Source: Diprion similis
Lineage: Eukaryota; Arthropoda; Insecta; Hymenoptera; Diprionidae
Assembly: GCF_021155765.1 (NCBI RefSeq)
Contig: NC_060107.1
Location: forward strand, 15,238,501 to 15,302,500
Direction: 5' to 3'
Length of the DNA stretch: 64,000 nt
A program made the position numbers and the translations under genes. Position 1 is the stretch's first letter, and the number at the start of each line of letters is the position of its first letter. Under the pieces are notes generated by a model. It was given only the letters and a program-made list of their open reading frames with translations. It had not been told where the DNA came from and searched no databases. Shown here piece after piece: positions 17,475 to 39,675 of the stretch.

Positions 17475-17865
17475 TACGATATTAAAGCTACTTGCGTGTT
17501 TATGAGAACATGAATTGTGTAACAACAATAATAATACAATGTAATGATTTGGAAATGCTTTTTGATTTTCAATTTCCTTGAGAAATCAGTTTGTCTTACC
17601 TAAACTTTAGTTTCCAACGAAACTGTATTTTAATTGAATGTACACAGAGTTTACAAGATGCAATCTTATAGACGATCAGTTTTTAATCATTGTTAGCCTT
17701 TGCCAGCGCATTGAAAGATGGCGCATCGCTTTCAATTACATGAAACAAAATATAAATGATACATCTTCACACGACACACAATAACACAACAAGATACTCA
17801 ACGTAAACAATCGCAAGTGCCAACCTCTGAATTTAAATTTAATTCGGGATCAGGATAATTGCGCA

Positions 17866-19516
17866 ATGTCTGATTCAGGTGAAATTGTGATGGAGAAAGA
17901 CACTGCGAATCCGACAAACCATGACAGCAATGTTGTACTGCGAGAGAAACGATCTGCTGAATGTGTAAAAAGAAATTTTGCATCGCAGCCTGTAATTTGT
18001 TTGGATGATGAGCAATTTTTGGCTAGAAAAATATCCTCGGCTCCTAATACTGGGACAGAAATATCTTACGACGATTTATGCGGCAAATGGTCATTTCCGG
18101 ATACTCCTGCATATCAGAGATATGATATTTCCCTGTTTCCTCGGATATACACTTGGAAATTTATTGATGAAATTGATGTGTTCTATTTGAAGCAATTTCA
18201 AGATGATAAAGAAGCTGTTCTAGCATTAATTAGTAAACAGCTGCTTGCTTTCTGTTGAAATATTCATAAAGTTCTGTGTATCGTAATGAAATATTCTGTC
18301 ACTTCAAATTCTTTCTACAACTAATTACTTTTATCAAAAAGTATAATTAAGCAAAATTCGACTTTCATGCTGCGTGTTCTTTTTTAGTTACAGCTAAAAG
18401 TAGTAAAAGTAATTGTCATAAGGTACTAAGCATACATTATTGATCAGAATTAGTTAAAACTTGGTATGAATTTTGAATTTTTTACAATGATGTAATTTCA
18501 CTGCAAATGGATAAAATTTAACGTACAAATAAATATCATAAATATCGGCCGTATATTATATTTTTTTGGAATGGATAACACATTTTTTTTGGTCTTCACA
18601 AGCATCTTATCAACTTCTAATCAATAATGTAATGCGTTCCCTACACCAAAAAGTTTTATTTCTTGAAAGAATCATATCTTATGTTCACCGATAACTTTTT
18701 ATCATTGTAAAAGTTATTCGATTTTAAGCAACTCATACATATAATATTTCAATTCATCAATTTCAGAAAAGAAGCTACCGGATAAAATTATATTTACCGG
18801 CACTAACAAAGACATTTTCCTTCAATTGATGTGGGAAGTTTTCAGATTTTCAAGGTATTTGTTAAAAACAGTATAGCATGTATTGTTCGTGCTATTGTTT
18901 CTCAGATTCTAAGAGAAATAGAATAGCCAATTTGTTTACTTACGCATTACTTACAAAGCCACGCCTGGCTTTTAGCCAACGGACACAGAACGTTACATAT
19001 TGTAAAATATTGTACAGCAAAGTAACCGTGCCAGTTATAATTCATAGAGATAACGGATACAGCGAGATGTCGATTTCCTCCTTGCTTGGACTTTTTTACT
19101 TCACGCATCGTTATTTTCTAACAACAATTTGGCGCACTGCTGAAGATACGTACGAATTTTTCAAGGAAAGTCTTCTGCTACATTCTGTTACGGTCAGTTT
19201 ACATATTCGTGTGACCCAAATCAGCCGTATTTTGTAATTGCATTACAAAAAATTGAGAAAACAAATCAAAGAATTGATAACAACCCGCGAAATGGCACCA
19301 GAGATTCCGCTCTTCAAATAATTTTTTCAGCATCCACCGAAAAGCATCGAAGTATTTACGCCGACAGAAAGCAAGCAAGTGCTTGATTTATTCTGGACGA
19401 TATACATGCGACAATTATCTTTGCTGAGACTTGTTTGTCTACCAAATTACCGATTGATACTGCGACTGCAAAATGTGTCTGCAGATTATCGTGATAAAGA
19501 AGAGGAAAAATTATAA
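17866..19516 (+). CDS. Uncharacterised four-exon protein, 303 residues
   Basis: Exons 17866-18232, 18767-18854, 18922-19192 and 19331-19516, with consistent phases (1, 2, 0) and a TAA stop. I do not recognise it with confidence. The N-terminus is polar (MSDSGEIVMEKD). A helical middle contains EIDVFYLKQFQDDKEAVLAL and IFLQLMWEVFRFSR. The C-terminal half has SLLGLFYFTHRYFLTTIW, YEFFKESLLLHSVTHPPKS and IYMRQLSLLRLVCL, and it ends in acidic and basic residues. No signal peptide is seen and no zinc motif. The order of helices faintly recalls vertebrate C8orf74, a testis protein of similar size, but that is a weak guess. The exon 2/3 junction is the least certain, because two other AG sites there would cause a stop. 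Its 3' end converges with the giant coiled-coil gene, stops about 240 bp apart. Confidence 0.7.
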
Positions 19517-19757: not shown

Positions 19758-22700
19758 TCACTTGCTCGTCGACGACTGATAACCACAGTCGCGGCTTTCG
19801 TCCAACCCAGGATCGCTTTCGGCCTTGTTTATTGCATTTTTACTCCACCACTGGTTGTTCCTTCTCAACTCTTGAGTCAAATGCTCTATTTTTGGAAACC
19901 ACCAAGAATTACCGCAAGCCGATGTACGTCGAGCATTTCTTATCGGACCAAGAGAAGATTTCTGGAATATGAAATTGTGATAGTTGTTGACTTTCATACT
20001 TCGTATCCAAATAAAATATACCATAAATAAATTATCTATTTATTTTCGACTTGTACTAACTTTTCCTACACGCGAATGGTTGGAGTTTGATGGATCGGTT
20101 CGACCGTTGGGAAAATTTGAAATGAAAGTTTGGGAAGTTCTGTATCCATTGTACACACTCTTCATTCCTCTGCCGCAAACAGATGGCTTGTGGAGACGCT
20201 TTATTCTCTGTGTCAGCGCGCAATTTGCTCGTCGCAGTTCTCTGATTGTTGCTAGAAGTGCTCTGTACATGAAAGAAGAGGTTTTTGTTCCATTTTCAAG
20301 TATCAATGGATCTTATCAGCTCCATCAAATAATGGGAGGACCGAAAAGTACCGTTGAAGAAAACTTTGTGCGGATAATTGTGAACACGAATGAAATAACA
20401 TATGTGGTCTGTAATAAAAATAATCCTGAGAAAATTTTAATAACACAAGTTGAGATATCAACGCGAGAAAGTTTTATAATTAGAACGTTCGAAATAATTA
20501 AACTCTGGTCTTTTTGATCTGATTCATCATCATCATACAATCGGATTAAAAACACCAGAGTTTAATCGTTTCGAATTTTCTAATTATAAAACCTTTTCTC
20601 AAATTTTTGATTCCTTAGCTTGTGTTATTCGCATTTCCTTGTAATCATTTTTTACATAATATGGATGAAGAAATTTTTGTAATCCATTACTTTTTTTCAA
20701 ATGCAAGCTGCATCACTTGCTGTTGTTTAACATTGAGCTTAGATGCCAATGTCTCAACCAAATTCTTCTGCTCATCCATCCAAGCGCGAATACATGACAC
20801 TACATGTTGCGACTCGGTACACAATTCGGACCGACTCACTGCGACTTGACTCAATTCGGCTGACATGCTGACAAGTGATTTTGCCTTCACCTGATATTCT
20901 TGTCGTAATTCAAGCAACGATCTGTGCATATCTTGAAGCTGAAACGAATATTTTTAGTTCGATGAATTGTTACAAACAGAAGGAACAGATCCAATCTCAA
21001 AGAAAGAGTTAAATAAGAAGCATCAAATTATTCCGATTCGATGTTTGTATAAATGCTTACTTCATATACGTTTAAGAAGAATTACCTCTGATACGCATTT
21101 GAAATTTTTTTGTTCAAGTATGCTTTTCTTAGTAGCAAGGTCGCAATTTTCTTCCAGAGATTGTTGCAGCTGTTTCGACAAGCAGCATTTGACTTCTTCC
21201 ATTTTCAATAATTTTTCTTGGAGAGACCGGATCTGGAACCGGGAATCAAAACTGACGTTCAATATTATTGGAGATTGAAAATTCGTTATTTATATTCTCT
21301 GTCAAATTGGTGGTTTCAAATTGTCTGTATCATTTATATGTATTGTTAAAAAAATAAATAGACAGTTGAAAATTAGAAAAAAAAGGAACAGAAAATACCG
21401 AATGCAAAGTGAGCGTTGAATTGAGATTCGTTTTTCGGTATGTACCTCAATTTTGGACGCCGATTCTTTACACATGTTTGTTCTCAATTCCGTATGAACT
21501 TTTGCTAGTTCTGTACTTAATCTTTCACGCATATCATCTTCAATATTCTGCTGATATATACATGTACATATGTAACGAAAAATTATTGTGCGCAAAAAAG
21601 GTATCGAGAAATTAACTTACGCAGCTTGTGTGACTGTCAATTTGCGTCCTCAAATGCGTATTTTCAGTATCGTTACAACACATCAGCTCGTTCAGTTTTG
21701 CTTCTAATTTATTAACTGTAATTCGCAGAGCGTTGTTGTCTTCTTTGTGCTTTTGACACTGTTGAAATCGAATATCAGTAAAAAAAATTTCCCTATTAAT
21801 TTTATTAGTGTGCTTTGAAAATAGAAACTCACTTCTTGTTGGACAGATTCCAACTGACTGGCGTAACATTTGCTACGGCATTGAGCCTGACAAAGTTGAG
21901 AAGTTTTGGTCAAAAGCTCGTTGTGAGCATCCTCCAGTTCTTCGCTGAGCTTGTCGATGACATCTGACAGTCGATTTTCCTCCTGCTCCGCTAATGATAG
22001 TTTTGATAGCAACTTGTTTTCCTGAAAATCGAACGTTTACTAAGGCATTAGAATCGAACTATTCCACAGTATTAGATGCAACTTATGACGAGTTATCTCG
22101 ATTACCATGGATGTGAGCGCGTGTTGTAAATCCACCTCTCTCTTTGTTGCCTCGACTAAAAGCTCCTGGCTCTTGTTGAAATCTTGGGTTACTTTGCGAT
22201 AATTATTCTCCATCTGAGATAACTGCGTTTGAACACCTTTCAACTGAAATATAAAATGTTCTCTGAGATCCGATTCAACGTTTGCGACAGGCTGATTTTT
22301 TATGCGATGATTTCAAGCTACCCTTTTTTTCAAATCGCCGATGTCCTCACTCGCTTTGTTCTCGAATATACCTTGTTCCGCTTTCAGTATAGAATTAGCA
22401 TTCTAAAAAACGTGTACAGATTACGATCGATGCAATCAGAAGTAAGCTAATCATACTCGTGTCAGTTCTTTGCCATCATACCTTCAGAATTTGATGGTCG
22501 GCTTGCAGCTTTACCATGTCATCCGATTTTTCTTGCAATATCAGCTTTAGCGAAGAAACTCTATCGCGGAGTACAGCTAATATTTCCTTGGAAACATTTA
22601 ATTCGCCAAGACACTCTTCGGTCTGCTCTTCACTCATTTGTAACTGTTTCTCCAACTGTTCCATGTAACGAGAGTTCTCTCTTTTAGCTTCCTCAAAATT

Positions 22701-25700
22701 CTTGAGCTGATCAGATAGTGCTTTCATCTGGATAATGCAATTTTCATCAGTGCCATAATCGGTCACAAGATTTGCAAATTAGATATTGCCACAGTATTCC
22801 ACTATCATATGAAATCGGAAAGCGAAAGGCTTAATAAGTGATTCTAACAAAGTTTGGGGTGTCGTAATGGAATATTTCACCAATATTTCTTTTACTCCAA
22901 AGTAAAATAGGTCAGATGTCAATCAATTTTACTTTGAAATAGGATCGATTTACAATAAAAATCGAATCTCCACGGAAGTTAAACAAAATTAATTATTAGT
23001 CAATATTAAGCAGATCACAAACTATGCAAACACTTTTTCAATGTTGTTCCGCTTTATGGTCCCCGTGAATGATCTCTGACTGTAAAAGTACATCAATAAT
23101 TTGATAATCGCCCGACTGCATAAAAATATACACTTACTTCTTCGTTTTTCAGATTGACTTCATCGTGTAAGTGAGCAATTGTTTCTGAGCATCTTTTCAG
23201 CTTAAACTCAGTATTTTTGTTATCTAGTTGTAGAATCTCAAAATCCTTCCTCATACGTTCATTCAAGTTCTTCAATTCTTCGGTCCTCTAGAAATACGAT
23301 CAAATAGTAAGTCAATGTGATAATTATGACGATAAGACCTGCATACTAGGATGTTTAGTTTGGAAACAAAATTGTTGTTTTTTTCTTTGCTTTCAGTTCA
23401 CAAACTTGTATTTAGCAAAAACAAGGTCCTCGTGGAAGAACATCTCTTAAATCGAATTTGAAAAAGTTTTTCTGACAATTCATAGTGTTTATACTTAAAT
23501 AACACAAGGGACCTGTCGTGTGTTTTTTAGTTGCATTTTATAGAAAATATATTGCTTACAAAAATGTCCAGTGAGCGAGATCCATTACTTTATTACACAA
23601 AAGATTACATATTCTCCATATAATTGATAGGAAAATGCCTAACTTCGAGAGCAGCCTTTTGAAATTGTATTCAAGAGATATCCTTTGACATGAGTTTTTT
23701 TTTTTGCTATGTACAAGTTTTTCGGCTTAAAGGAGAGAAAAAAATTTTCGCTTCTAAATGAAACCCTACTGTTGTACAGAAAATAATTGGATCAGTTCAC
23801 GTAATCAGGGTTCACTCGAAGTAGCAAAGTTCGATGCGCATTTGACGGTTTGAACCAAGTACCTCTAATTCTTTCTTGAATTCCTTTAAAATCTTAAGTT
23901 CCTCCTCTTTGATTTTAGCTTCGTTGGCTAGTTTCGCTAAGTCACAGTTACATTGTTGAAGTTCATCCTTTACTACGACAGATTTGACTTGCTGATTGAT
24001 AACATTAAACAACGATAAACTCGGGGTATCGAATGAAATCCAAATACAGATAGAAGACGTGATAAGATTACCTGATTTTTCCCCAATTCTTGTTCCAAAT
24101 GAATTTCCTTTTCCTTCAGTATTTGCAGCTCGTTCACTACAGCTTCAGTTTGCCTTGTATGATCGCCCAATTCCTGCTTCAAAGATTCATTCTCCGTCCG
24201 CAATTGCTCGATATCGGAGTTAGATTTTCTCTCGGACTTCAATTCCTCTTCGAATATTTCCAAGTCTATTTTATATTTCTGTAGCTGCTTTCTCATGTCT
24301 TTATCTCTCTCGGTTGAAACCAATATTTTGTTTCGTAATTGCCTCTCAATGTTTTCAGATTTTTTCAATAAATCCTCCAACTCTTTTATCTTCCTGCCCT
24401 GGATCTCTTCCATGTCTTTCATTCTGGCATCCCTCGAGGCCAGTTTGCAGGTCAAATCTTTCATCGCACAATTTTTCTGATTTATCTCTGCTTTACAATT
24501 ACTAATTTCCGTTTGATAACATTTTAAGTCGTTTTCTTTCTTCGTCAAAATCGACCTGAAAAAGAAAACTAACTATTATCCCGTTTCCAAGTTGATTGAG
24601 AGTTTATTTTGTCCCAAGTTTACATTACTTCAGTTCTTGCAACTCTTCGCTTGCTTCCTGCCATAATCTTTTCAGATTTTTATACTTCTCTTCTAAGCAG
24701 TTCTTCGATTTCACAAGATTTTCCATCTGGAATTATACTTTATGTATATGACGATAACTGATTTAATGCTTTTAAGTCAACTTCATCCTCTACAATTACC
24801 TTAGTTGTGATGGTTTCGTATTCTTTGCGGTGGTTCTGTAGCTGATCCTAGAATATTGCCAAAGTATTAGAACAAGTACAAGTTATTCACCCAGTTTACA
24901 AATGTATGCTCAACATTTAACGTTCTACACCAGTTTTGGAATATTTTGCAAGCATGTTTAAAGAGTTACCAAAACGCTAGCGTTCGATATTACATTAACA
25001 CCGAAATCAGAAAGTACAAATTGACAATAGTCGAAATAAACAGGGCTGATAGTAATGTGATAAAGCTTTATTTTACACTTACAGAAATACAATGGAATTC
25101 TGTAGAAATCTATAATACACTACCTGTATTGTACTCAATATGGCAAAATATGCCGAGTGTAAATTCGTGACAATTAAAGAATTGTCCATTTGCTCTATCT
25201 TTTGCCTCAGCTGATGGACTGCTTCCCGTTGAAACTCTAAGATTGTGTCTTGCTTGGCAGCCTCGCAAATAAACGATATATTAAAGTAATAATATAGTGC
25301 TATTCTGAGTAGCGAGCTAAATTTTGTGTCAACGATGTTATTTACTCGGAAATCTTACCTCTTCGAAGCATTGACTGTACTGATATTGGGTTTCGTTTAA
25401 ATATAGTGTCAGTAATTGAATAGCTTCGTCTTTATCGTTAAGCTGTAATTAACACGAGATACACAATGTTTATAACATTATGAAAGATGTACATAATAAT
25501 CGATATTTCGTAAATAAAAAGTGGTGTAATTCAGAAAAAGCGACAGACTTAAAAAAATCTACCACTTTCAATAACAGTTCCACCGAGCAACGTGCGAATT
25601 TTTCACATGCACAGGCACGAACCAAATAGCATGTACAATTTATTTTTCAGAACAGGTTTTCTTAGCGATAAAAACTGTTGTTCATCCAAGTTTTTCACGG

Positions 25701-26240
25701 ATTTATTACAATAGAAATGGATATAAACAGGATTGCGTTTAACAGATACTGTAAAGAAACCAATCTCATGCTCTTGATATTCAATTTAATTGAATTCCAG
25801 ATTTACATATTAATGATTAAATAGATTTTGAAACATACTATTCTCACAAAATAAGATTTTAAATCAATTTTGAGTGGATGGAAACGAATTCTGGTTCGAA
25901 GTCTTTTAATATAGGCTCATCTAAGTTTAGCATCATACAGTGTATCCATGAGGAAAGTGCGCATCTATGCGCATGTGTCAAGTCGTTCAAATTTTATTGG
26001 CCTACAGTTACCGCCTAATTGGGCAGCCGACGAAATACCAATTGCGACTGTCACAAAATCTCTCTAGGAGTTCACCCTTAGCTGTAGGCTCCTAGGGACA
26101 TTTTCTGACAGTTGCGATTGGTATTACGTCGGCGGTAACTCTCGGCCAATAAAATTCGAACGACTTGACGCAGGCGCATAAGGCGCAGACTTCCCTTATG
26201 GATACACAGTAGAATTACAATTAAATCTGTATTTACAAGG

Positions 26241-26279
<39 letters not shown>

Positions 26280-29200
26280 TTATACACACAAAATGTATGC
26301 ATTGTATGTATAACAAGTTATTTTTGTATCTGTACAATTAGTAGTGTTAGATGAAAACGGACTAACTTAATGTAATTCATTGTTAATTGTACAAATCTCT
26401 GGCATCAAACGTCATGCACATTCCCATGGTTGTACATAGTCGATGAAGCGGAGTTCCTTAGTCCACTCACTTCGCTAGCCGCTCTGTTTCCCATTTGATC
26501 TAAGCGTCTCTTAGCTTCCACCACTGCTTCTTGTAGATTACCAATAGTTTGGACTTGGAGTTCATTCTGAAAATAAAACCTTACACGTAACTATAACTCA
26601 AAGAAGGTATGGAAAAAAAAAGCAGTGTTAAACTTTTCAAATGACAATTGCAAATTGTAATATGATACAAACCTCTTTTTCCAAACGAGTTTTCTGTTGT
26701 TCAAGTTCAATAATTGCCTGACCTTGCAGCTGAACCTGAATTGAGCAAAGATTTCATTTAATTACAATTTTTTGGCACGTTTTTTGTTTGAAAGTTGATA
26801 TACGGTGCAGAGGATTCAATGGGGACTAGTACGTAGCAAAAACTCATTATTACAGGATAAAAATGTGCACTATTTTCTCATGAGTATTTTGAATTATTAA
26901 GGTTTTCAAAACTTCATAGTTGACGTTTACTGTTGGAACATTAAAAATCACATTTTTTATAATTAACTCGTATGCAATCATAGCTTTGCAATACATGTTC
27001 AATTTTTAGCGAAACCATTTTATTATTGTGATGTTGAAGTTACATTGTTAGTGCAATTTGACTTCAAAACGTACTGCTGAGTGTGGGAATATATGGGAAG
27101 TCCTTTGTTGAATATTTGAATAGTATTTCGTCATTTCAAGCATAACTTGGCCAAAAATGAAGAGCAAGAAACTTCTTATACTCGAACAGAAATTGTATTT
27201 CCTCTGAAAATATAAACGTACCTTATGAAGTCAAATTGGATTAGTAGTGTACCTTAAACCTGCTGGCCTGAAATAATTATGAAAGCCATGATTTTTTCTT
27301 AAGTTTCAAGAAGTAACGAGTTTTGTAAAATCTCGAGAATATTTCATGGCAGAAATAATAATTAATATTTGCACGTATGATTAGTTTCTACCATATATTG
27401 AATCCCATGGTTAGCACCGCCCCAATCCTCATGGTATAAATTGTGAAAGACGTACCTCTGATTGTACGAGCTGCAAATTCTCCAACATCTTTTCTTTATG
27501 TAGATCCTGGGATACGTGAAAACAAACACAATGTTAAAAAAAATATTTATGCTTACTCTTACAAGGGGTAAATATTTTTAATGTAAAATTTAACGACATT
27601 TATAAATACCGAATATGTCTAATCTTACTTCAATGATCATTCCTTTTACTCAACACCAAGTAGTATACTATTTTGTAGTAAACACTTTTCATATTTTCTG
27701 TCCGTACGCTAAAATAGTTGACCGATATATATCTCTGTATACGCTTTTATTATCCATAAATGTCACGAAGAGAAATGTTTATCGAAACACGTTTCACGAA
27801 TGTATAAAAAAGCACTGCGCAATTTCATAATTCTTAGCGAGTGATAAAAAAGCTCAAATTCTCTGCGTGCAGCTTGGAAATTGCTTTGTTCTCAAGATTG
27901 ACCAAAGTATTTCAATTCACAGAGAACAAACTCAGGGTAATTTCAATCTGGAAATGTTCATTTCCGGTGAAAAATGGGTGAAGAAATAGAAGAAGAATCG
28001 GTTGGTTTTTACTGCATTAACAGATCAGGAGAAAATTTTGGTACTCTAAATGTTAAAACTGTGTTAATATAATGCCAAATTTAGGCAGCGAATAGTTAGA
28101 TATAATAAAGTTTATGATAATCCCACCTTTTCTTGCATCTTCTGATGTAAGTCCTTCAACTCCGCTTGAGTCATCTTAATCGAGTCTTTCTGTATACGTA
28201 TAATCTCTTCTTTATTTTCAAGCTGAAAGTAGGAACATGATTGATATTTTGAAAAAATGACAGACCGTGGTTTCATCAAAACGACTTAAAATTGTTATAT
28301 AATTTTTATGAAGAAAATAAAAATGGTGAGAAAATAATTGCAAGAATAAGATAATGGTATTTACCAGCTTTTCTTTGGAGCATAAAGTATTCCTAAGCTT
28401 GTCAACATCTGCAAAACATTGCTCTGTTGTTTGACCGTATTTTCTTAGTATATCCATTGCTGCTGAGAAAGAACCAGAGGACAGTGACGAATGTGAAGAT
28501 CCTTCGCACACCTGGAATTGATGAGTAATTAAAAATAACCATGAAAAAAATTGTTTTCGGAAAATTTGAGAATTTTTTACATGTTTACTTAGAACGTCAA
28601 TTTTTCTATTTTTTCAATTTTTTTAAACATTCTTCTCGGTTTTTCTGAAGAATTTCCGATAAATTCTTGTGCTTTCCTAAAATGTATAGAAATTTCTCAT
28701 TGTCTACATACGAAATTTAATTGAGCAGATTCGTGGCAAAAATCAGTAATATTTTTTGAAATTTAATTTTATGATTCGAGTTTTCTGTAAAAATTGTTCC
28801 ACCTCTAAACTCGACTTGGTAGAGGTAGTCCGAAACGTAACAACTCAAGGTTCAAATTATAATAATTCTTTCAAAAAAGTTTCTGGAAATTTTCGCAGAA
28901 CTCTCCGAAAATATAAAATATTTCTGAGCAAAATGATGAATTGAAGAGAATATTTGTTATCGAGAGAGTAAAATGTTAGTTTAATAGATTATTACAGTCC
29001 CAATATGTATCGCATGAATGCATAACAACGCACCAATTTTTTAAGCTCGTTTCCAAGTTCTTCCAAGCCACACCTAGCTGATTGCATAGTGTCCTGTAAA
29101 ACTTTGAAGGACTGCGGTATAGTCTGAAATAATAATAATAATAGTAAGAAAGTTGTTAGTATTATTAATAAAGAGAAAATATTGAAATTAAAATAATTAC

Positions 29201-32200
29201 CTCGAATTTGAAGTCTTGGCTGCAAATAGTATGCATTCCGTCTGATTTGTAATGACTCTGTAGGGAAGTAAATGTAAAAGACATGTCCAGAAAGAAATAA
29301 GACAAAGTTAACGATTATCCATTATCGGATTAATTATACTCACGCAACAACCTAGGAGATCTTTTGACTTTTTAAGCTCTATTTCACTGCAGTCAAGGTC
29401 CCGTCGCAGCACATCCTCCCTCTCTTTGTGCCTCCTTGCCTAAAATGACAAAACAGATGGCAAAAGTTCTTAGAACGAATGAAGTGGTTAAACTTTCCTT
29501 TATTATTGCTATTCTTACCTCGTTCTGAAGATCTCTTATCTGGTCCTGCAAATCAGAAACGCGATATTTCCACTCGTTCAGCTTGGCGTGTTTTTGTGCT
29601 TCGCATATTTCCTTTAAGAATTAGTCAATCGCTAGTTATAAAGATTTCTCAATATTCAATATTATATGAAACATATTTTATAATAGAGAATCATTGGTTC
29701 CTTACCAACGACGTTTTTACTCGGAAATCATCATATTCCTTTTGGACTTTTCTAAGATCATCCTTGATTTTGAAAAGGTCCTCTTGCTTGGTCTAGAAAA
29801 AGAAAAGACATGAATAATCGTAAGCTTATTAATCAAAATTCATTAGTAACGATTGAGAGAAAAGGAAATGGGACTGCGATATGTTGTTTCACTCAACTGA
29901 AATACAGTTCAGTTCAGACATGCCATTGGTTACGTGAAATGTCAAAAATCGAGACGTGAGAAGCACCAAAACAGCATTTACCTTGCAAAGAGAATCTTCG
30001 TAGTAATCGGTTTGATTTGTTAAGGCGCTGGAGTTTCCATTTGAGATCTGAAAGGTAGTATAAAAGAATTTACTTCGAGCAGTTAATCCCTCGTATAAAA
30101 CTGAAATAAGCGATAACTCACTTGTTCCATAACAGAAGAAAAGTTTTCTAGCATATCCTGCATTTTCGTATGCGTATTGTCAAGTTCGTGCTCAAGTCTG
30201 TTGAGTTTCTTACTCCTTTCAGAAAAGACGTTTTGGGCCATCTCGTTGTCGAGTAGCTTCACAACACATAAATATGATTGGAAAGTGGGAAAGAAAAACA
30301 AAAAGAATACGAAGATAACACTGAAATTACATTTCAGGTGTAAGAATTTTAATACTTATTGAATATTAAATATGTTTACGATTCCATTTTACTGTACACA
30401 TTTGATGGGGAAAAGTTACACTTACGACTTCATCTGCTTTTTTTTGAAAGTCTTTGAAGCATTCTTCCAGATAACTCAGCTGCCCTCTAACTTCCAATAA
30501 CGTTGCGACCGCATTGCACTCCTAGAATGCGATAATTTGTTTATAACAAACAGTATCACCTACTTTGTAAAATAAATAAAAATCAAAGTTAGCAGATGAT
30601 CAATTCAAAATATGTATTCTATAACAAATTAGTTAACGCAATTCTAATACTTTACCCCAGTTTGACAGATCTGTACATTTGCTATAATTTGCTGAATCTC
30701 GTCGTTCACTATACTCAATAAATGATCGCATTTGTGGACTTTCACAGCTCCAATTGAATTGCATTCCTTTGATGAAATGAAACAGTACCAAAAGGTCAAT
30801 TTATTTTTAACAAAGTTTTATAAACTTTATCTTTTACCTAAATACATCTGAAAAATTGCCAAATATTTACGTCAAGTTTGTTAATGGCGCCGCCGACGCA
30901 CCGGGACAAGTCACTTGTCATCTGATTTATTTCATTCTTCAGATCCTTTAACTTGATTGCACCATTTGCTATTCGCTCATTGTGCCTCAGTTTTTCTTGT
31001 TCCTATAAAGATCGAAACGATGTTCCATTTACTGTTTTCTGACTTTCAAAACTGACAGCTTCGAATTGAATTCTTATGTATTCTTACTTGGAGCTTGAAT
31101 TGGTTTATAGTGTCCGTCAAATTTTCCCTCGTCTTTGTCAAATGTTCCTGTATTTGCTTCACTAATTTGGTTAGCTCTATAAACTATGAAAGAGAATACG
31201 GGGTTCTTAAACTTTGCGAGATTGTGCGATAATTTGTACTTTACAATACTCTTGTAACTGAGCGAACCTTTTCGTGTCGACAATTCAACGAACTTATAAC
31301 ATTTGTCATTTCTTCACGCAGGTCTTCGGTAGCTGCCTGCGCTTCCACTGTACAAATTCTAAACTCTTCCATCATACGAAAGTGTTGGATTGCTTCGTTG
31401 ATTACCTGAATGCATTACAGTACAAGATAATAGTCTTAGCAATTTTTCCTCAGTGTATTTCACATTTTATGAACTGGAAAAGTAATCAACACTTACCACC
31501 GAAGATCCTTTTACAGGCGTGCAATCGTCCTTGCGCTTCTTTACCTGAAGCGAAAACCTGTCTTAGAAAACATACCCAGTGATCAAGGTTGGCAGATACA
31601 CTTACCGCTGTTTTTATTAAGTTTATCGCCTTCTCCTTGTCTTTATAGATTTTAGAGATACTCTCGATGCTGCTGGTTGTCCGTTTTTTCAAATTCTGCA
31701 TTTGTGTTCTGTTACTGTCATCTACGCATGACTGTAAAACAAATTTTATGAGTTCAGACTTGAATGAAGTCAAGCCGATCGACCAAATTTCATCTAAATT
31801 AGTTAATCCATTTCGAGTAATTGACAGACGAAAAAAGTTCATTTAGACAAAATGCTTGGGAATAGCTGAAATAGTTTTTTTCTAAATCTCAAAAGTTCTA
31901 AGCTGTGAAGAATCGCATTGATTGAGTTCCAAATCGTTGATATCCGTTAATTCATCGTCGAGATATCGTTGGACAAAAATTAATCAGAACCACGACCAGA
32001 AGTTCATCTGAAAATTTTTGGATGCGATTCCCTGAGCCTCAAAACATAGACATTTAGTGGAAACTGAACTTTTCATTTTTGGAGTAATTATATTCATATA
32101 CACATATATGCAACTTGTTTCTTCTTTGAAAACAGAAAGGGAGGAAGATGAAAATATCTTCAATTGGACATAATTGTGAAAACTAACGTATTTGGCGGTG

Positions 32201-35200
32201 ATTTCAACGATATGTGATAAACGTTTCAGCACAGCGTCAAAGCCGTTTAACAATGTTCTAGCGCTGCCGCAACATGTGTCCTAGATGAAACGGGTACAAA
32301 ATTGATTTAATAAGAAGCTCAACGAAAGTTAAAAAACAATTTTATGACAGAACTTGGTTTACTTTCGATAATTTGTTGCATCGTAAATCAGCAAGTAGTG
32401 ATTTCATGTTCTGCAATGTCACTTCGTTACTCGTGCTCTAAAATAATCATCAAACGAGATCAAATATAAGAATAATACCAAGAACCAGCAACTTGTTTCG
32501 CACGTTCTGAAACCTGGTAATTTTCAATAGGTCTGAATACATACTGCACATGAAGCAGACTGAAGTAAGTCAAGAAGAGACGTGATTTTTGTCTCGACTG
32601 CATCCCGATTGCTTTTCATAATCTCCATAAACTTGGTCTGCAATAAGTATTCAAGGAAATCGATAATCGTTGATTGATTCAATTTCAGACAGTTGAAAGA
32701 AAAAAAAAAGTATTGAAACTTATACATAACATTTTAAGAGCATGTTTATAAAAGCTACCTTCCTCAAAGCGTACGTGAGATCTTGTTTATTGCTAAACAC
32801 TTACATGACCAATTATTTCTGTCTTGTAATTAATGAGCAATTTTTCTGTGTCCAGTAATTTTTCCTGAACTTTTGCCACTCCGTTATCTCGGTGTAAATC
32901 CTAAACCGAGTGAAAACGGGAAGTAAAAGTAATTCGTGAATGAAATTTGCATTTTGGAACTTTACAATTCTTGCACCTTTACCTGCAGGTTACTAGAGAT
33001 GAGTTTTCAAAAAATTGAACAAACCTCTTTTTCCTTGGTGCTGACTTCTTCCAGGATCTTTTGCAGTTCCGTTCTCAATCCCAATAGCGCTTCTTTCTCC
33101 TTTTCCATCAACACTTTGGTATTTGATAAATAGACTAGAATCTCATCCTAAAATAGTAATTAAAATGGTATTAATGATGAAACTAGGATCAGAGTCGTTG
33201 CGATTTACAAAAGTATCAACCGTATTCATAATACCTGATGGTGACTTGGACTATTTCCGTCTGTTGCATCTTCTTCCTGAAACAGAGAAATGGACTTTAT
33301 AAATATGATCCATCAATGATCAATTTGAACGATTAATTCTTACCTCCACTGACGTGTCAGTTTTAATTCGCACCCTCCGAGCGGACGAACAAGTTTCCTG
33401 AAAATACAAAGAATATATTGCTAAATTGAAGGTTTGTTATGTTTGATGAACTTTTAGCGTAAAATGAATAGCAACAAACAAAAACTAACACAACTTCTGA
33501 ACCGATTTTGTAACTACTTGCGATTAGTGAATTAGTAATTCATAGACAATCAAGAATACATTGGCCGTTCGAACAAAATTTTATTAACTAACACAATAAT
33601 CAATAGTTCTTACAACGTGTAGTTATTCAATTATATATATATATGTATATATTTATATATTTCATTTTCAACTTGAAGGTGTTTTTTCCGAGACATAGTG
33701 CACCTGAATGCCTGTTGGTTGTTTGTTATTTCGTGAGTTAGAATCTTTGCAAGGTGGGGAGAGTTTTCTGCTGGATTTTATTATCTGATGATCGACTTCT
33801 TGGAAATATTTATTTCTGTTAACAACAACGTCGCTCTGCGTTTGCTGCTGAGAAACCATCGATTTTTCAAAACTTTCTCTACCATTGAGTCTGTTTTCAG
33901 GGTTCGAACGACGGTGCAAAGACGGCACTTTATTCTTGCAACATGGGGAAAATTGCAGGGGTGCGGAAGGGATGAACTTATGATAACATTCCCAGTAAGG
34001 CGGGTCAGTTGCGTCAATACCATTTCCGTCACAAGAACTTTGCATGCAGGAGAAACGCGACGATATTGAAGGCTAGAAATCCAAGCCTGAGTGTTATTCA
34101 CATGAATAAGGTGAAAATTTTGTGCGAGAAAGTAGACATTTTTGGGTTGTTCGTTTGGGAGAAACATTTTTTTTTTTACCACCGCAGCTCAAACTGTGCA
34201 AAAAAGTTATAAGTCTCAGCTCGAAGAAGAATTTATGTAAAAATTCGATTGACTAATCTGCAGGTGATTCAATTTTCTGTAAAAATATTTACACAAAAAA
34301 AAATCTTAATGATCAATTTTATGTACAAATTCATTTTTAAACGTCTTTGATGGCTGAATTATTGACTTTACAACGATCATTCAAATGACATTTTTATCCA
34401 CGATCTAATTGACTACAAAATACTTTCAGGAGGATTTTCTTTTTTTACCAGAAACGATAAGTTTTCAGGTAAAAGTAGAGTAAAAAAAAAAATGTTAGTC
34501 TCAAACAAAACACCCCGACAATTAGGTCAGAGTAATTACTTTAAGTTTGGCCTGCTTGAGCTCCCTTCTCATTTCTTTGATGATGTCGTCCTTGAAATGC
34601 GTTTGCATATCAGATTGGCGGCACTGTTCTTCGAGCATGGCGAGTTCCTCACGTAGAGACAAAACAAGATCATGTTTTTCAGCTACTTCGACCGTCAGGG
34701 CATCGCGAGTTTCAAGTGATTCCTAAAGGTGAGAATCGCTTTTAGATATTGAAGTTTTAAACTGATGATACGAATGTGAGAGAATATGATGAACAAACTT
34801 TTTTCAAACAAGTCATTCGATTTTCAAGCTGCTCAAGTTCCATGCACTTTTCATCCAGTTTAGACTGCAGAGTTTCCATTCCGATGCTCTTTTCGTGCAA
34901 TAGCTTCTCTAATTTAGTTTCACTCTCCATTAAATCCGACCGCAACTTTTCTATCTCTAGCTCACTTGTCTTTAAGGCATTTTCCACAATGTCAGCCATT
35001 CTGACAATCTGAACAGTAACAGATATCTTCAATATATATATTCAAATACAGTAATGATGAGAATAAATTAACTGGATAGAATCCGAAGCGAGCGATAAGC
35101 GCAGAGAACAAAGGTTTGCGCTGTAAAACTTGAAAACTTTTTCACTATTTCGTATCCAGTCATCGAGCAATTGAAACGTTTCGACACATATTTTTGGCCA

Positions 35201-38200
35201 TTTTACATACACAGTTTTATATACTCATCATGTATGATCCGATAAATGAAATAGTTCTGGAAATCCTTTACCGGTAAGAAATGTAGACACGTCTTTGAGA
35301 AAAACGATATAGATTGTCAAGAAAAGAATGATTCACACTGTTATTTAGCCATTTGAATGGTGCATAGGCCATTCTTAAATTCCTATTCACTCAAAAAGTT
35401 TGCGCATGTGTAATTCTGAATAAAATTATTACAATATATTGATATATATCAGATAAAACATCCAGTATAAACACATTTCCTACATGCAACTTAACGTGAT
35501 ATAATAGTTAGAATGGAATACAAGGGAATAGAATCGAAATTCCTGTTTTCTTTTTGTGCCGAGAGAGTAATTATACTTTCTGAGGGACTTACGTCAGAAT
35601 CAACGTCAACATCTGGTGAAGTTGATTGCAGTACAATTTGATTGGCCAATATAGAGCGGTTTTTCAGATTATCTCTAAGAGTTTGAAGTTTGGAGATGTA
35701 TTTTCTAATTGTCTCTTCTTTTAAAACTACTTGTTTGTTCTGTTCGGCCAACTTTTCTTCCAGATTTGTTCGATACCTGTAAAATTTGGTTTGATTTAAT
35801 CAGTTACGAGTTGCAATAGTGTCGACACATTTCTCTTCCAAATTGTGCTGACGATTACGTGATCTTGGACATTCATAAATTTGTGCAGCTTTGTTTACCG
35901 TGTCAAAAATTAAAGTGTCGGGCGTAGGGTATAAATCACGTTGTTAATTTGGAATGCTTCATTTTTTTTTCGGTGCAGTTGGCAAAATTTTTCACATAAA
36001 AAATAAAGTGTTTCGCACGGTGAAACATAAAAGTCAAATGATATTTAAAAATATTATTTTTTCAAATCGAAATTGTGTGATTGTAGAAGAATCATAGCAA
36101 AGTCGAAGATGTTCCAATGCATAACGTGATCGTTACCCTGTGACAAGCACTTTTACTTCTTCTGGCTGTAACCACGGAAGCCAAAGTTGCACAAATCTGC
36201 AATTATTATAAAATTCTTGGGATAGAAAAGTAAATTTAATAAAATATTTGTAATTCTAAATATCGTTAAATCAGTAATGCTTCATTTTCAATGACTTACG
36301 CCAAGGCCTGTTTCTCATTTTCCTTCAGTTGATCAACCTGCTCTTTTAGACTAGTGATGTACTCTGCTGTATCTTCTTTTTCCTAATTTGAGGGCAATTG
36401 TCAATTACTCCGTAGTTTTCTCAACAAGGTATTTTTTACTTTGAACGTTTTACATGAGTCGATAATAATTCTTTAATCGCCAGATTGTTTGTGACACTGA
36501 TTTTGATGGATAATAATTTAGTGCATGGAATATCCAGTTTTTATCATTATTATTGAAAAGTGAGCTTCCGATTTCGCGAAATTAAAAATTAGTAACAAAA
36601 ATACAAATAAAGCGCCACGCAATAACGAGATAACGTTTGTTTTTTCAAAACTTGTGAACTATACACGTGCGATTTTATTCAACAATTTCATATACATATC
36701 AGAGATCTCTTTATTAAAAAAAAATAGCTAGCAAAGCTGTTTGGTTTATACATTCAGCGTATTCTTGTAAAAAGATGTTTTTCCAATTGAATTACAATTG
36801 ACTTGGGCAAACTCGGTCTAGTTCTTCAATTAATAAATTATTCCAACGTGTTACATATAAGTTATAATGTAGTTGAGAAGAAAATAAAAATAATCAGTAT
36901 AAATTATAATAGCAAAATAAAAAATTATAACAGCAAAAGCTTTACAAAAAAATCATAAAGTTGAACTGGAAACAAAAAGTTTTGTATGTATGTACATTGC
37001 TAATACTAATAAAAAAACATTTGTATTTTCAGTAGTAAAACACAGAAGAGATGAAAAATAGAAGTAAATAAAAATTTTTATGAAAACCATGCTTGAAATG
37101 ACGACGGAAGGTTTTTCATGTCAAATTCATAGTTAGGTAAATGTTATTTCAAGTGTTTTTCAAACCTGAGACATTGATACAAAGTTACTGACTTGAATAT
37201 TTGGAAAAAAGTGAAAAGATAATCTACTGAAAAGTAATAGGCAAGTTATCCGTATCGCATGGAAAGCAGACTGTTGGACGAATGGTTGGACAGTCGCAAA
37301 AACTTCTATTTTCTGGACACTCTGGCCCTCTAGCAAGCCCTCGTCCCAATTCAAGAATAAGCCTAACTTTCTTGTCCGCAATTGTGCGTGAATTTACCTG
37401 TCCACAGGTGCAGCTGAAAGAAGAAAGAACCAAGTTGAAAAAAATAGAGTGCCTGAATAGAAAAGAAGAGTTTTTTGAAAAGGAAAAAAAGAAAAAAAAG
37501 TCCCACAGACATGAATGTTATCGTTCACAGTTATATCATGATGTAACAAAGAAGAAAAGATATTTATAAATGAAACTAATTATGGAAAGAACCTGATTAT
37601 AGTTATTAAAACGATATTTTTCCATTCTACTTTAGATGTAATTAACGGAAATGTTCCACTTTTCAGATTGCCAAAATAAAACTTTGTTGCATACAGGCAA
37701 AGCGGGATCTATGATAAATATTTCCAAATTTCTTTTCATCATATTCTCCACCTTGCTCCAAGTGCTAATAAGAAGATAATTTCAGCAAGTCCAGTGATTT
37801 GGTAGAAACTTACTCCAGAGGAGCTGGGATGTCGTTCGGCTGGATTTCAAAAAATGTTATCCCATCCAGACTCCAGCAATTTTCTCTTCTAGCCCTTCTT
37901 ATCAGCTCGAGCAGTCCTCTGATATCACTTTGGAGAAACTCTATTCTTTGCTGAAGCGTTTCTTCATCTTTCATAAGTTGAGTGACACGGTTTGCGAGAG
38001 CGGTGATAGACTGGATGATGATAAGCATTTAAAATACTGATGGCGAGAGAGAGAAACAACTTCAAATCAAAGAAGATATGTGTAACAGAATCGAACGATT
38101 GTACAACCGACAGTAAGTATTTTATAAAATTGACAACAGAAACATAAAGAACGTGCTTACAAATGTAAATATAACGTGTGTCGATGTCAAATTAAAAGGA

Positions 38201-39675
38201 AAAACTGTGCAAGTTGAAATTTCTAATTCGTATGAGAGATTCTATGAATTAGGGATTTGTGTCAATCTTTCAATTCCAAATATCCAGACACTAGTGTGAA
38301 TTTCTCCAACTTTGACGAGTGTGGAATTTGTAACGTTTACATGAAACCGAGTTAAAAATTTTCAGCTATGTGATGAATTGCAAAATATGGATTCGAAAAA
38401 AAACAGAGTAAACTAGTTCCGGTCATAACACATACAAAGCAATTTCAAAGTTGGAAAAATGTTGTTTTTGCCTTCAACATTACGAGACTCTGGTTATAAG
38501 TTATCACCAATAACTCACCCCATCATCATCCGTATTCCGCTTATTGATATTAGCAACTGCAGCAGTTGATTGTCGAAGCTTTTCTTCTAATAGTATGACT
38601 CTGTTTGCAGCTTCACGCTCAAGTTCCTCAACAGTACGTACCAGCATTGCATTTTGTTCGCCTAAATCTTTGACCCACTCTTCCATTATTTTCAACTTTG
38701 CCTGAAACGCACAGCATTTTATGTCATCAGAGAAGACATTGAAACGGATAAAGAATTGCTAAATAAAGTGGTTCACAAAGTGATAGACGAAATATAATGG
38801 AATAGTTTAAAGTAATCAGATTGATCAATTTCTATACTGCTAAATAATAATCATAATGTGTTGCTTTAAATTGCATTTATATGAATTACGACAGCAGATG
38901 ATTCATATAATTCAACATACAGTCTAAAAAAACTGCTGACTTAAATTAAACCAGTTACCAAACATTCGTGTAAACAAATAATCGTATCAATGTGTTTTGA
39001 ATTAAATTTACAAAAAGTATAGCAGCCGGCAACTAATATGGTTAGATTTTTTATCTAGAATAATTTTTGACTTAAAGGTAAACCGATTGCCAAGCATTTA
39101 CATAAACATTTCATCATATTGGTAACGTGTAGTTATAAATTGCATTCGTGTCAATTACAACAACAAATGACTCAAATGATTCAACTTTTCACCTACGATA
39201 ACTTCAAATTTGGAGTGAACTGATCGCTCAACATTTACACAAACATATTTAAATAAAATTTATGTGTTACTTTGAATAACATTTACACCGATCACAATAG
39301 CAGACGATTACTATAAATCAGTTATCGCACGATTAAAATATATCGATAGTGTGAATAAAGGTTGTAAATAAAGGGGAACACGAAAAGCATGATTGTAATG
39401 ACATGTGGACTAAGAAAAATAAAAAATACGCGGACCAGATGGAAAAATTTAATGTTGATAAAAGGGAGTAGAAATAAATAAGGCATGAATTGCTATTGAT
39501 TACTTACGTGATCCGAACCTCCGTCAGTACCTTCACTAATTTTCCCGATACGGTCTTCGTAAAGCTTTCGAAAATCATCAAGAATCCGTAAAGTACTAGT
39601 TTCGCCACACACGTCGCCTGTTTCCTCGTTGATACCCTGACAGCCCTTGGATGTCGGTTCGCCGGAATAATCCAT
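19758..39675 (-). CDS. Giant coiled-coil protein, yuri gagarin-like (long isoform)
   Basis: About 52 exons whose phases all agree, giving about 2169 residues. Exons: 39508-39675, 38519-38701, 37814-38010, 37398-37413, 36300-36382, 36137-36196, 35593-35776, 34799-35008, 34540-34722, 33344-33397, 33235-33276, 33025-33147, 32805-32900, 32545-32637, 32363-32437, 32188-32280, 31606-31731, 31497-31544, 31268-31405, 31088-31183, 30871-31002, 30656-30766, 30426-30521, 30122-30256, 29982-30047, 29706-29792, 29519-29611, 29344-29439, 29201-29257, 29034-29123, 28365-28511, 28127-28222, 27456-27506, 26673-26735, 26471-26566, 25359-25442, 25124-25261, 24800-24847, 24629-24726, 24072-24555, 23863-23991, 23138-23287, 22482-22727, 22322-22402, 22106-22243, 21833-22021, 21621-21758, 21446-21547, 21086-21232, 20691-20938, 20061-20262, 19758-19961. 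Almost all of it is heptad coiled coil. The N-terminus reads LRILDDFRKLYEDRIGKI and KIMEEWVKDLGEQNAMLV. A Trp-rich break, QLWLPWLQPEEV, lies near residue 225, and the C-terminal 120 residues are basic and non-coiled. From memory it resembles Drosophila yuri gagarin (sperm basal body, actin, gravitaxis); this is unverified. The weakest junction is the acceptor of the exon starting at 30256. Confidence 0.8.
20000..20035 (+). terminator. AATAAA cluster downstream of the unnamed gene
   Basis: Two plus-strand AATAAA hexamers lie close together about 490-510 nt past the stop of the 303-residue gene, within the last intron of the opposing coiled-coil gene. If used, the two transcripts would overlap tail to tail. 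Confidence 0.25.
25937..26210. repeat. Foldback (MITE-like) element in a coiled-coil gene intron
   Basis: A near-palindromic element of 274 bp. The left end reads ACAGTGTATCC and the right end is its reverse complement with one mismatch; the similarity continues inward through the blocks AAGTCGTTC/GAACGACTT, ATTTTATTGGCC/GGCCAATAAAAT and ACCAATTGCGACTGTCA/TGACAGTTGCGATTGGT. The arms are about 120 bp with few differences and a short unpaired centre. No ORF is present. It is non-autonomous and the responsible transposase is unknown. Confidence 0.8.
26243..26270. repeat. (AT)n microsatellite
   Basis: Fourteen uninterrupted AT dinucleotides, just right of the foldback element, followed by mixed AC/AT repeats. 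Confidence 0.9.
33580..33585 (-). terminator. Poly(A) signal of the short coiled-coil isoform
   Basis: AATAAA on the minus strand, 83 nt past the stop of the alternative terminal exon at 33668-34072. It supports an internal 3' end of the coiled-coil gene. Confidence 0.55.
33634..33662. repeat. AT-rich microsatellite
   Basis: Imperfect (TA)n run with ATGTAT interruptions, in the 3' UTR of the presumed short coiled-coil isoform. Confidence 0.7.
33668..34072 (-). CDS. Alternative terminal exon of the coiled-coil gene
   Basis: An open frame of 134 codons plus stop, beginning right after a TTTCTAG acceptor and in the phase (0) needed to follow the exon ending at 34540. It is not coiled coil: it is rich in Ser, Pro, Asn, Gln and Cys (FIPSAPLQFSPCCKNK, KLSPPCKDSNSRNNKQP) and ends EKTPSS. 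Joined to the first nine exons it gives a protein of about 562 residues, near 65 kDa. A poly(A) hexamer follows 83 nt after the stop. From memory, Drosophila yuri makes a medium isoform of about this size. Skipping this exon leads into the long form through the exon at 33344-33397, which accepts the same phase. Confidence 0.6.
   Translation of the reverse strand, partial: PSISSRFSCMQSSCDGNGIDATDPPYWECYHKFIPSAPLQFSPCCKNKVPSLHRRSNPENRLNGRESFEKSMVSQQQTQSDVVVNRNKYFQEVDHQIIKSSRKLSPPCKDSNSRNNKQPTGIQVHYVSEKTPSS
37224..37413 (-). CDS. Cys-rich alternative end, or 16-nt microexon with an open intron
   Basis: After a good acceptor (TTCTTTCAG) the frame stays open for 62 codons. It is strikingly rich in Cys and Pro: CTCGQVNSRT early, then ECPENRSFCDCPTIRPTVCF and CDTDNLP, ending at TAG. 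The acceptor phase (2) fits the exon ending at 37814. To reach the next coiled-coil exon (phase 0) the best donor is CAG-GTAAAT after only 16 nt (37398-37413). Two readings are therefore possible: a 16-nt microexon in the longer forms, and read-through of its donor to give a short isoform of about 245 residues with a Cys-rich tail. No AATAAA is seen close to the TAG. Confidence 0.45.
38850..39335. repeat. Degenerate tandem repeat, about 134-bp unit, four copies
   Basis: Four diverged copies begin near 38855, 38989, 39123 and 39261. Each carries a TGTGTT-like block, then ATTGCATTT-like and ACAGCAGATGA-like blocks, then a segment resembling TAAACCAGTTACCAAACATT. Spacing is 134-138 bp. It lies in intron 1 of the coiled-coil gene. 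No ORF is conserved. Confidence 0.65.

What the first reader, a model, noticed from the sequence alone, without database searches (positions are those of the whole stretch)
19758..39675. One 20-kb coiled-coil gene with about 52 in-phase exons
Every minus-strand open block between 19.8 and 39.7 kb can be joined with consistent splice phase into one protein of about 2169 residues. Automated annotation often splits such loci. The N-terminal region and the predicted isoform sizes agree with what I remember of Drosophila yuri gagarin, known for sperm basal-body and gravity-response phenotypes. The long form would be far larger than the best-studied fly isoforms.
Basis: partly seen in the sequence, partly recalled or inferred. 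Interest (0 to 1): 0.7.

Follow-up and report, generated by a model that had tools for sequence, protein, structure and literature searches.

The report
Large many-exon insect coiled-coil gene
A 20-kb stretch of an insect chromosome carries one large gene, cut into about 52 small exons, for a rod-like coiled-coil protein of about 2,170 residues; the gene looks real, but its proposed identity as the fly sperm and gravity gene yuri gagarin could not be shown.

Summary
A splice-aware gene finder written here, allowing any intron phase, joins the minus-strand blocks into one gene starting at 39675 in 8 of 8 parameter settings. The score is 517.6, against 0 on the opposite strand and 0-6.6 in 20 simulated sequences. 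Models trained on half the gene rebuild it, and the same finder recovers the neighbours COG4, lysyl-tRNA synthetase and Tube, with one 16-residue error seen in LysRS. About 56% of residues are predicted coiled coil. Two exon searches found no second copy.

The Yuri identity is not shown. Pfam's Yuri_gagarin model (PF15934) matched nothing in this locus, and no fly Yuri sequence could be reached. One of three predicted short-form sizes resembles published Yuri isoforms. TTAGG repeats suggest a non-fly insect. A single full-length transcript cannot be shown from DNA. Most likely this is an ordinary, divergent, large coiled-coil scaffold gene, perhaps with alternative 3' ends.

The parts
19758..39675 (-). 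whole coding span of the coiled-coil gene, 52 exons, 2,170 aa
39508..39675 (-). exon 1 with start ATG at 39675 (G at -3, G at +4; in-frame stop TAA just upstream)
   Evidence: 8 of 8 runs
38519..38701 (-). exon 2
   Evidence: 8 of 8
37814..38010 (-). exon 3 (ends in phase 2)
   Evidence: 8 of 8
37398..37413 (-). exon 4, 16-nt microexon restoring phase 0
   Evidence: 8 of 8
36300..36382 (-). exon 5
   Evidence: 8 of 8
36137..36196 (-). exon 6, possible cassette, in phase but weak
   Evidence: hand-added; 0 of 8
35593..35776 (-). exon 7
   Evidence: 8 of 8
34799..35008 (-). exon 8 (weak donor GTTTGT)
   Evidence: 8 of 8
34540..34722 (-). exon 9
   Evidence: 8 of 8
33668..34072 (-). possible alternative 3'-terminal exon (134 aa, weak acceptor, AATAAA at 33585)
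   Evidence: weak
33344..33397 (-). exon 10
   Evidence: 8 of 8
33235..33276 (-). exon 11
   Evidence: 5 of 8
33025..33147 (-). exon 12
   Evidence: 8 of 8
32805..32900 (-). exon 13
   Evidence: 8 of 8
32545..32637 (-). exon 14
   Evidence: 8 of 8
32363..32437 (-). exon 15 (weak sites)
   Evidence: 1 of 8; stops in both other frames
32188..32280 (-). exon 16 (weak donor)
   Evidence: 1 of 8; stops in both other frames
31606..31731 (-). exon 17
   Evidence: 8 of 8
31497..31544 (-). exon 18
   Evidence: 8 of 8
31268..31405 (-). exon 19
   Evidence: 8 of 8
31088..31183 (-). exon 20
   Evidence: 8 of 8
30871..31002 (-). exon 21
   Evidence: 8 of 8
30656..30766 (-). exon 22
   Evidence: 5 of 8
30426..30521 (-). 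exon 23
   Evidence: 8 of 8
30122..30256 (-). exon 24
   Evidence: 8 of 8
29982..30047 (-). exon 25
   Evidence: 8 of 8
29706..29792 (-). exon 26
   Evidence: 8 of 8
29519..29611 (-). exon 27
   Evidence: 8 of 8
29344..29439 (-). exon 28
   Evidence: 8 of 8
29201..29257 (-). exon 29
   Evidence: 2 of 8; negative codon score
29034..29123 (-). exon 30 (acceptor at 29123 set by hand; the finder used 29093)
28365..28511 (-). exon 31
   Evidence: 8 of 8
28127..28222 (-). exon 32
   Evidence: 8 of 8
27456..27506 (-). exon 33
   Evidence: 8 of 8
26673..26735 (-). exon 34
   Evidence: 8 of 8
26471..26566 (-). exon 35; if its donor is not used the frame stops at 26405 (1,249-aa form)
   Evidence: 8 of 8
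25359..25442 (-). exon 36
   Evidence: 8 of 8
25124..25261 (-). exon 37 (weak acceptor)
   Evidence: 8 of 8
24800..24847 (-). exon 38
   Evidence: 8 of 8
24629..24726 (-). exon 39 (ends in phase 2)
   Evidence: 8 of 8
24072..24555 (-). exon 40, longest exon (484 nt), coiled coil
   Evidence: 8 of 8
23863..23991 (-). exon 41
   Evidence: 8 of 8
23138..23287 (-). exon 42
   Evidence: 8 of 8
22482..22727 (-). exon 43
   Evidence: 8 of 8
22322..22402 (-). exon 44
   Evidence: 8 of 8
22106..22243 (-). exon 45
   Evidence: 8 of 8
21833..22021 (-). exon 46
   Evidence: 8 of 8
21621..21758 (-). exon 47
   Evidence: 8 of 8
21446..21550 (-). exon 48
   Evidence: 8 of 8
21086..21232 (-). exon 49
   Evidence: 8 of 8
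20691..20938 (-). exon 50; without its donor the frame stops at 20687
   Evidence: start in 8 of 8, end varies
20061..20262 (-). exon 51 (negative codon score, in phase)
   Evidence: start in 4 of 8, other end
19758..19961 (-). exon 52, terminal, stop TGA (negative codon score)

Best explanation
The locus is one gene, with no second copy found, of what is probably a non-dipteran insect. It encodes a large cytoplasmic coiled-coil protein of about 2,170 residues, perhaps with shorter forms made by alternative 3' ends (a possible terminal exon near 33.7 kb, read-through to a stop at 26405, and stops at 20687 or 20040). Supported by sequence: the exon chain, the reading frame and the heptad-rich composition. 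Inferred: the protein dimerises into an extended, interrupted rod that acts as a scaffold or tether on the cytoskeleton or centrosome/basal body. Short forms would keep the N-terminal end, and the long form would add reach and binding surface. Because 46 of 51 introns are phase 0, many exons could be skipped without a frameshift, so the rod length could be varied by splicing; this too is inferred. Whether it is the orthologue of fly Yuri is open; I put that at about 0.3.
For: One gene in 8 of 8 settings. 517.6 against 0 (plus strand) and 0-6.6 (20 simulations). Rebuilt by models trained on either half of the gene. Chosen frame best in 48 of 52 exons with half-trained codon models. 56% coiled coil against 5-20% shuffled; heptad register continues across 10 of 17 testable junctions against 23% for swapped junctions (binomial p 0.0017). 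Positive control: the same finder, retrained on each neighbour and at intron penalty -6, rebuilds COG4, LysRS and Tube; the LysRS model aligns from residue 5 to 499 of 508 with a solved LysRS, with 16 residues missed. No hydrophobic segment of transmembrane strength: the highest 19-residue mean is 1.06. Searches with exon 40 and with exons 2-4 found no other place better than E 0.19.
Against: No RNA evidence. Ten exons rest on weaker support, and exons 6, 29, 51 and 52 have negative codon scores; the end of the gene varied between runs. GT-AG introns and the open frame are built into the method. The splice, COILS and hydropathy tables were typed from recall. The codon model was trained on the locus itself, apart from the half-gene tests. 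The register test used only 14 to 20 of 51 junctions. The alternative ends are weak: of six candidate stops only three have AATAAA or ATTAAA within 150 nt (33668, 20687, 20040), and AATAAA occurs 28 times in the 22.8 kb searched. The scaffold role rests on composition alone: no Pfam family reached its cut-off, and 4 searches of solved structures gave no hit below E 0.01 (they did not cover exons 6, 9, 24-40 and 47-49).
Confidence: 0.85

Rival explanations
1. The gene is the orthologue of Drosophila yuri gagarin, in a form much longer than the studied fly isoforms, working at the sperm basal body and head-tail junction.
For: Large coiled-coil protein with possible alternative ends; one predicted form of about 62 kDa (542 aa) is near the published 64-65 kDa fly forms.
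Against: Pfam PF15934 Yuri_gagarin has no match in the locus. The 37.6- and 143-kDa forms do not match the published 30 and 101-107 kDa. A 2025 review calls Yuri Drosophila-specific (passages). The window genome has TTAGG repeats at a contig end, so it is probably not a fly.
Confidence: 0.3
2. Two or three neighbouring genes: an N-terminal gene ending near 33.67 kb (with a poly-A signal at 33585) and one or more further coiled-coil genes starting downstream, for example in exon 12.
For: A poly-A signal follows the 33668 stop. Exons 10 and 11 are short (18 and 14 codons) with small coding scores of 3.2 and 2.3, so open frames there could be chance. The donor of exon 9 is weak (0.7).
Against: Exon 10 has the strongest acceptor of the listed exons (5.3), which a first exon does not need. 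The possible terminal exon has a weak acceptor (-1.1) and a negative codon score (-25.1), and so long an open frame in that intron has a chance of 16% at the stretch's own base composition (1.2% at intron composition). All 8 settings kept one gene. The runs with gene penalty 0 or above, where that cut output can be read, broke the locus into many fragments, but that setting rewards spurious genes and says nothing either way.
Confidence: 0.12
3. The orthologue of another animal coiled-coil protein of centrioles or sperm (for example the CCDC157/Pif1A, PMFBP1 or centlein kinds), or a lineage-restricted insect protein.
For: Same general architecture; such proteins diverge fast (recalled).
Against: No family in Pfam reached its cut-off for any piece scanned.
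Confidence: 0.5
4. Chance chain of open blocks with no real gene.
For: Most joins are phase 0, so skipping or adding an exon seldom breaks the frame; the in-phase property is therefore weaker evidence than it looks. Introns of the neighbouring gene models are also mostly phase 0 (12 of 17, one LysRS junction being wrong).
Against: Controls.
Confidence: 0.01

Closest known systems
Drosophila yuri gagarin (Yuri)
   Same: Cytoplasmic coiled-coil protein with several isoforms and no transmembrane segment (PMC12539209 passages); here coiled coil and no transmembrane-strength segment.
   Different: No match to PF15934; predicted long form of 250.8 kDa against a largest published 101-107 kDa; probably not a fly genome.
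Drosophila Pif1A / CCDC157 and other sperm or centriole coiled-coil proteins
   Same: Coiled coil; for Pif1A, several transcripts (PMC6370830 passages).
Generic large coiled-coil rods (golgins, rootletin, CEP proteins; recalled)
   Same: Length, heptads, acidic pI, many exons.
   Different: No recognisable domain or relative found by Pfam or in the parts searched against solved structures.

Membership tests
Yuri gagarin family (Pfam PF15934) | match to the curated profile above its cut-off of 28 bits | tested here: not met
   Own genome, exon by exon: no window match, best elsewhere 18.5 bits. Spliced model and pieces: no PF15934 hit. Exons 6, 11, 29 and the first 30 nt of exon 30 were in no spliced piece scanned with Pfam.
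Yuri gagarin family (Pfam PF15934) | reciprocal best hit to Drosophila Yuri | not testable with these tools
   No insect protein or genome collection offered
Yuri gagarin family (Pfam PF15934) | isoform classes of 30, 64-65 and 101-107 kDa | tested here: inconclusive
   Predicted 37.6, about 62 and 143 kDa plus long forms; alternative ends unproven
Yuri gagarin family (Pfam PF15934) | sperm basal body / head-tail role with Spag4 | not testable with these tools
   Needs expression and mutants
Large coiled-coil proteins | long stretches of heptad repeats | tested here: met
   56% of residues P>0.5 against 5-20% in 20 shuffles; 20 segments, longest 123 residues (COILS table recalled)
Single protein-coding gene | one ATG-to-stop coding frame through spliced exons, beyond chance | tested here: met
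   Score 517.6 against 0-6.6 in 20 simulations; rebuilt by half-trained models
Single protein-coding gene | one transcript spanning all exons | not testable with these tools
   Needs long-read RNA

The most novel reading that the evidence does not exclude
The gene is a long-form Yuri orthologue in a non-dipteran insect. Yuri would then not be Drosophila-specific, and the studied fly forms would be shortened relics of a roughly 250-kDa tether between nucleus and basal body.
Probability: 0.25. Interest if true: 0.5.

Novelty: new member of a known kind. Interest (0 to 1): 0.25.

Why it matters
If it is Yuri, a protein described in a 2025 review as Drosophila-specific would be an older insect scaffold, and its long form could be tested as the missing cytoplasmic link in sperm head-tail attachment. 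If not, it is still a nearly complete model of a hard-to-annotate gene with 52 exons, a 16-nt microexon and possible alternative ends.

Tried and rejected
Pfam on the whole 1,880-aa first model gave 0 families; pieces gave only sub-cut-off matches, the lowest E-value being DUF6987 at 23.7 bits against a cut-off of 26. PF15934 in the genome gave two weak places (L002, L003). Read by eye, L002 is a plain coiled coil and L003 looks plakin-like (recalled, untested); neither is a better Yuri candidate. Searches of solved structures: best E 0.025, 0.11, 0.012, none up to 0.01; taken as chance. Viral contigs gave no relative. Exon duplication was tested and rejected: the best exon-exon score, 54, lies within the maxima of 45-67 of 20 shuffles. 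Phase-0 dominance (46 of 51) was considered as something special and played down: neighbours show 12 of 17, although AAG/CAG sites in the coding sequence are as common at phase 1 as at phase 0. Dynein light chain TQT-type motifs: none in the 2,170-aa protein; the possible terminal exon, not in that search, holds a TQS by eye. Gene penalties of 0 or more in the finder fragment the locus because they reward spurious genes; not used. Literature: searches found 0 papers; one listed 13 and 51 listed 20 of 30, and no title, abstract start or passage that I saw reports Yuri outside flies, but most of these papers were not opened; one search was swamped by its other terms (none of the 10 papers listed holds the name) and search 33, for yuri beside Cog4, was uninformative. 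Two yuri papers named (PMC2915878, PMC3390024) are not held.

Full report
What was checked. The window is 64 kb of contig C3 in a 269-Mb, 60-contig genome. TTAGG repeats lie at the start of contig C1 (the capped listing runs to base 529), with 16,775 overlapping exact matches to six repeats in the genome and 0 for the reversed control. From recalled knowledge, TTAGG telomeres are typical of insects but lost in flies, so this is probably a non-dipteran insect. The next gene on the minus strand is Tube (Tube Death domain). On the other side COG4 lies on the plus strand, with a plus-strand open frame without a Pfam match at 17785-18258 between.

Gene model. I wrote a splice-aware dynamic-programming gene finder that accepts GT-AG introns only, allows all phases and any number of genes on the strand. 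Its codon model was trained iteratively on the locus, and its splice-site weights are recalled insect-like values. It gave one gene from the ATG at 39675, first with 44 exons and 1,881 codons. Across 8 intron penalties it gave one gene starting at 39675 every time, with 44 to 55 exons (at low penalties two listed exons are zero-length artefacts). Adding, by hand, in-phase exons with plausible sites gave 52 exons, 2,170 residues and 250.8 kDa, with a stop at 19758. Ten of the 52 exons are less secure and are marked in the parts list.

Controls. Score 517.6 on the minus strand of the locus, 0 on the plus strand, and 0 to 6.6 in 20 Markov-3 sequences. Four other 21.8-kb stretches gave 85.2 (1-21800 plus, holding COG4), 73.1 (1-21800 minus, holding LysRS and also the 3' end of this gene), 36.1 and 2.1 (41001-62800 plus and minus) (genes). 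Codon models trained on one half of the coding sequence score the other half positively in the right frame (0.27 bits per codon) and negatively in the five others, and rebuild a single 44- or 45-exon gene. With these half-trained models the chosen frame is best in 48 of 52 exons; the other two frames hold 152 and 146 stops. As a positive control, the same finder, retrained locally at intron penalty -6, recovered COG4 (10 exons, 740 aa, all three COG4 Pfam domains nearly complete), LysRS (7 exons, 508 aa, aligned to a solved LysRS, 3bju, human by recall, over residues 5-499 with 16 residues missed at one junction) and Tube (3 exons, 415 aa). So small errors at single junctions should be expected in the 52-exon model too.

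Protein. 56% of residues lie in predicted coiled coil against 5 to 20% in 20 shuffles. The best heptad register continues across 10 of 17, 8 of 14 and 8 of 20 testable junctions with windows of 21, 18 and 14 residues, against 23%, 21% and 19% for swapped junctions (binomial p 0.0017, 0.0034, 0.021). The untested junctions (31 to 37 of 51) lacked a coiled-coil-like window on one side or lay at an end. No hydrophobic segment of transmembrane strength was found. No exon duplications. Searches with exon 40 and with exons 2-4 found only this locus as a strong match; other places were at E 0.19 or worse.

Alternative ends. Read-through after exon 7 gives 330 aa (37.6 kDa), after exon 35 1,249 aa (143 kDa), after exon 50 2,036 aa and after exon 51 2,109 aa. 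A possible terminal exon, 34072-33668, gives 562 aa, or 542 aa (62.1 kDa) without exon 6, and is followed by AATAAA at 33585. Its support is weak: acceptor -1.1, codon score -25.1, and a chance of 1.2% to 16% for so long an open frame depending on composition. AATAAA occurs 28 times in the 22.8 kb searched, so one match means little; the next signal after the stop at 35491 is more than 1.5 kb away, after 26405 about 400 nt, after 20687 about 120 nt (ATTAAA), at 20040 it overlaps the stop, and after 19758 it is about 370 nt away.

Identity. Pfam holds a Yuri_gagarin model, PF15934. It has no match in the window and none over its cut-off in the genome, and no match in the spliced protein or pieces (exons 6, 11, 29 and the first 30 nt of exon 30 not included). 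This counts against the identity but does not exclude a divergent orthologue, since the reach of that model outside flies could not be measured. No fly protein could be compared. Passages of a 2025 review (PMC12539209) describe Yuri as Drosophila-specific, cytosolic, with 30, 64-65 and 101-107 kDa isoforms, needed for head-tail linkage; only the about 62-kDa form here is close. The full-text searches that bear on it listed no report of Yuri outside flies in what I saw, mostly titles and abstract starts; passages of PMC5627270 mention Y-linked yuri in two Drosophila species.

Verdict. The likely role is that of a cytoplasmic scaffold or tether, inferred from architecture only.

Noticed in passing
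window 13547-17474 (+): COG4 gene, 10 exons, 740 aa, with all three COG4 Pfam domains.
   Followed up: partly
window 41913-40397 (-): Tube, with Tube Death domain and a tail carrying repeated ELPxVVxxIG-like motifs (by eye); no kinase domain matched in the model at E up to 0.001.
   Followed up: partly
window 5898-3054 (-): Lysyl-tRNA synthetase, 508 aa in the model, 24 solved LysRS sequences matched at E below 1e-100.
   Followed up: partly
window 61612-61043 (-): LSM-domain protein with Pro/Gly-rich tail, looks like SmB (name recalled).
   Followed up: no
window 34188-33668 (-): Two overlapping minus-strand frames of 135 and 134 codons are both open inside one intron of the coiled-coil gene.
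   Followed up: partly
window 25936-26211: Inside the intron after exon 35, three nested pairs of inverted arms (23, 50 and 45 nt, 87-90% complementary) make up a hairpin-like element of about 276 bp, perhaps a small foldback mobile element; other copies not looked for.
   Followed up: partly
genome contig C7:8182164-8182700: A partial COX1 match with 5 TGA codons on a long contig, probably a nuclear mitochondrial insertion.
   Followed up: no
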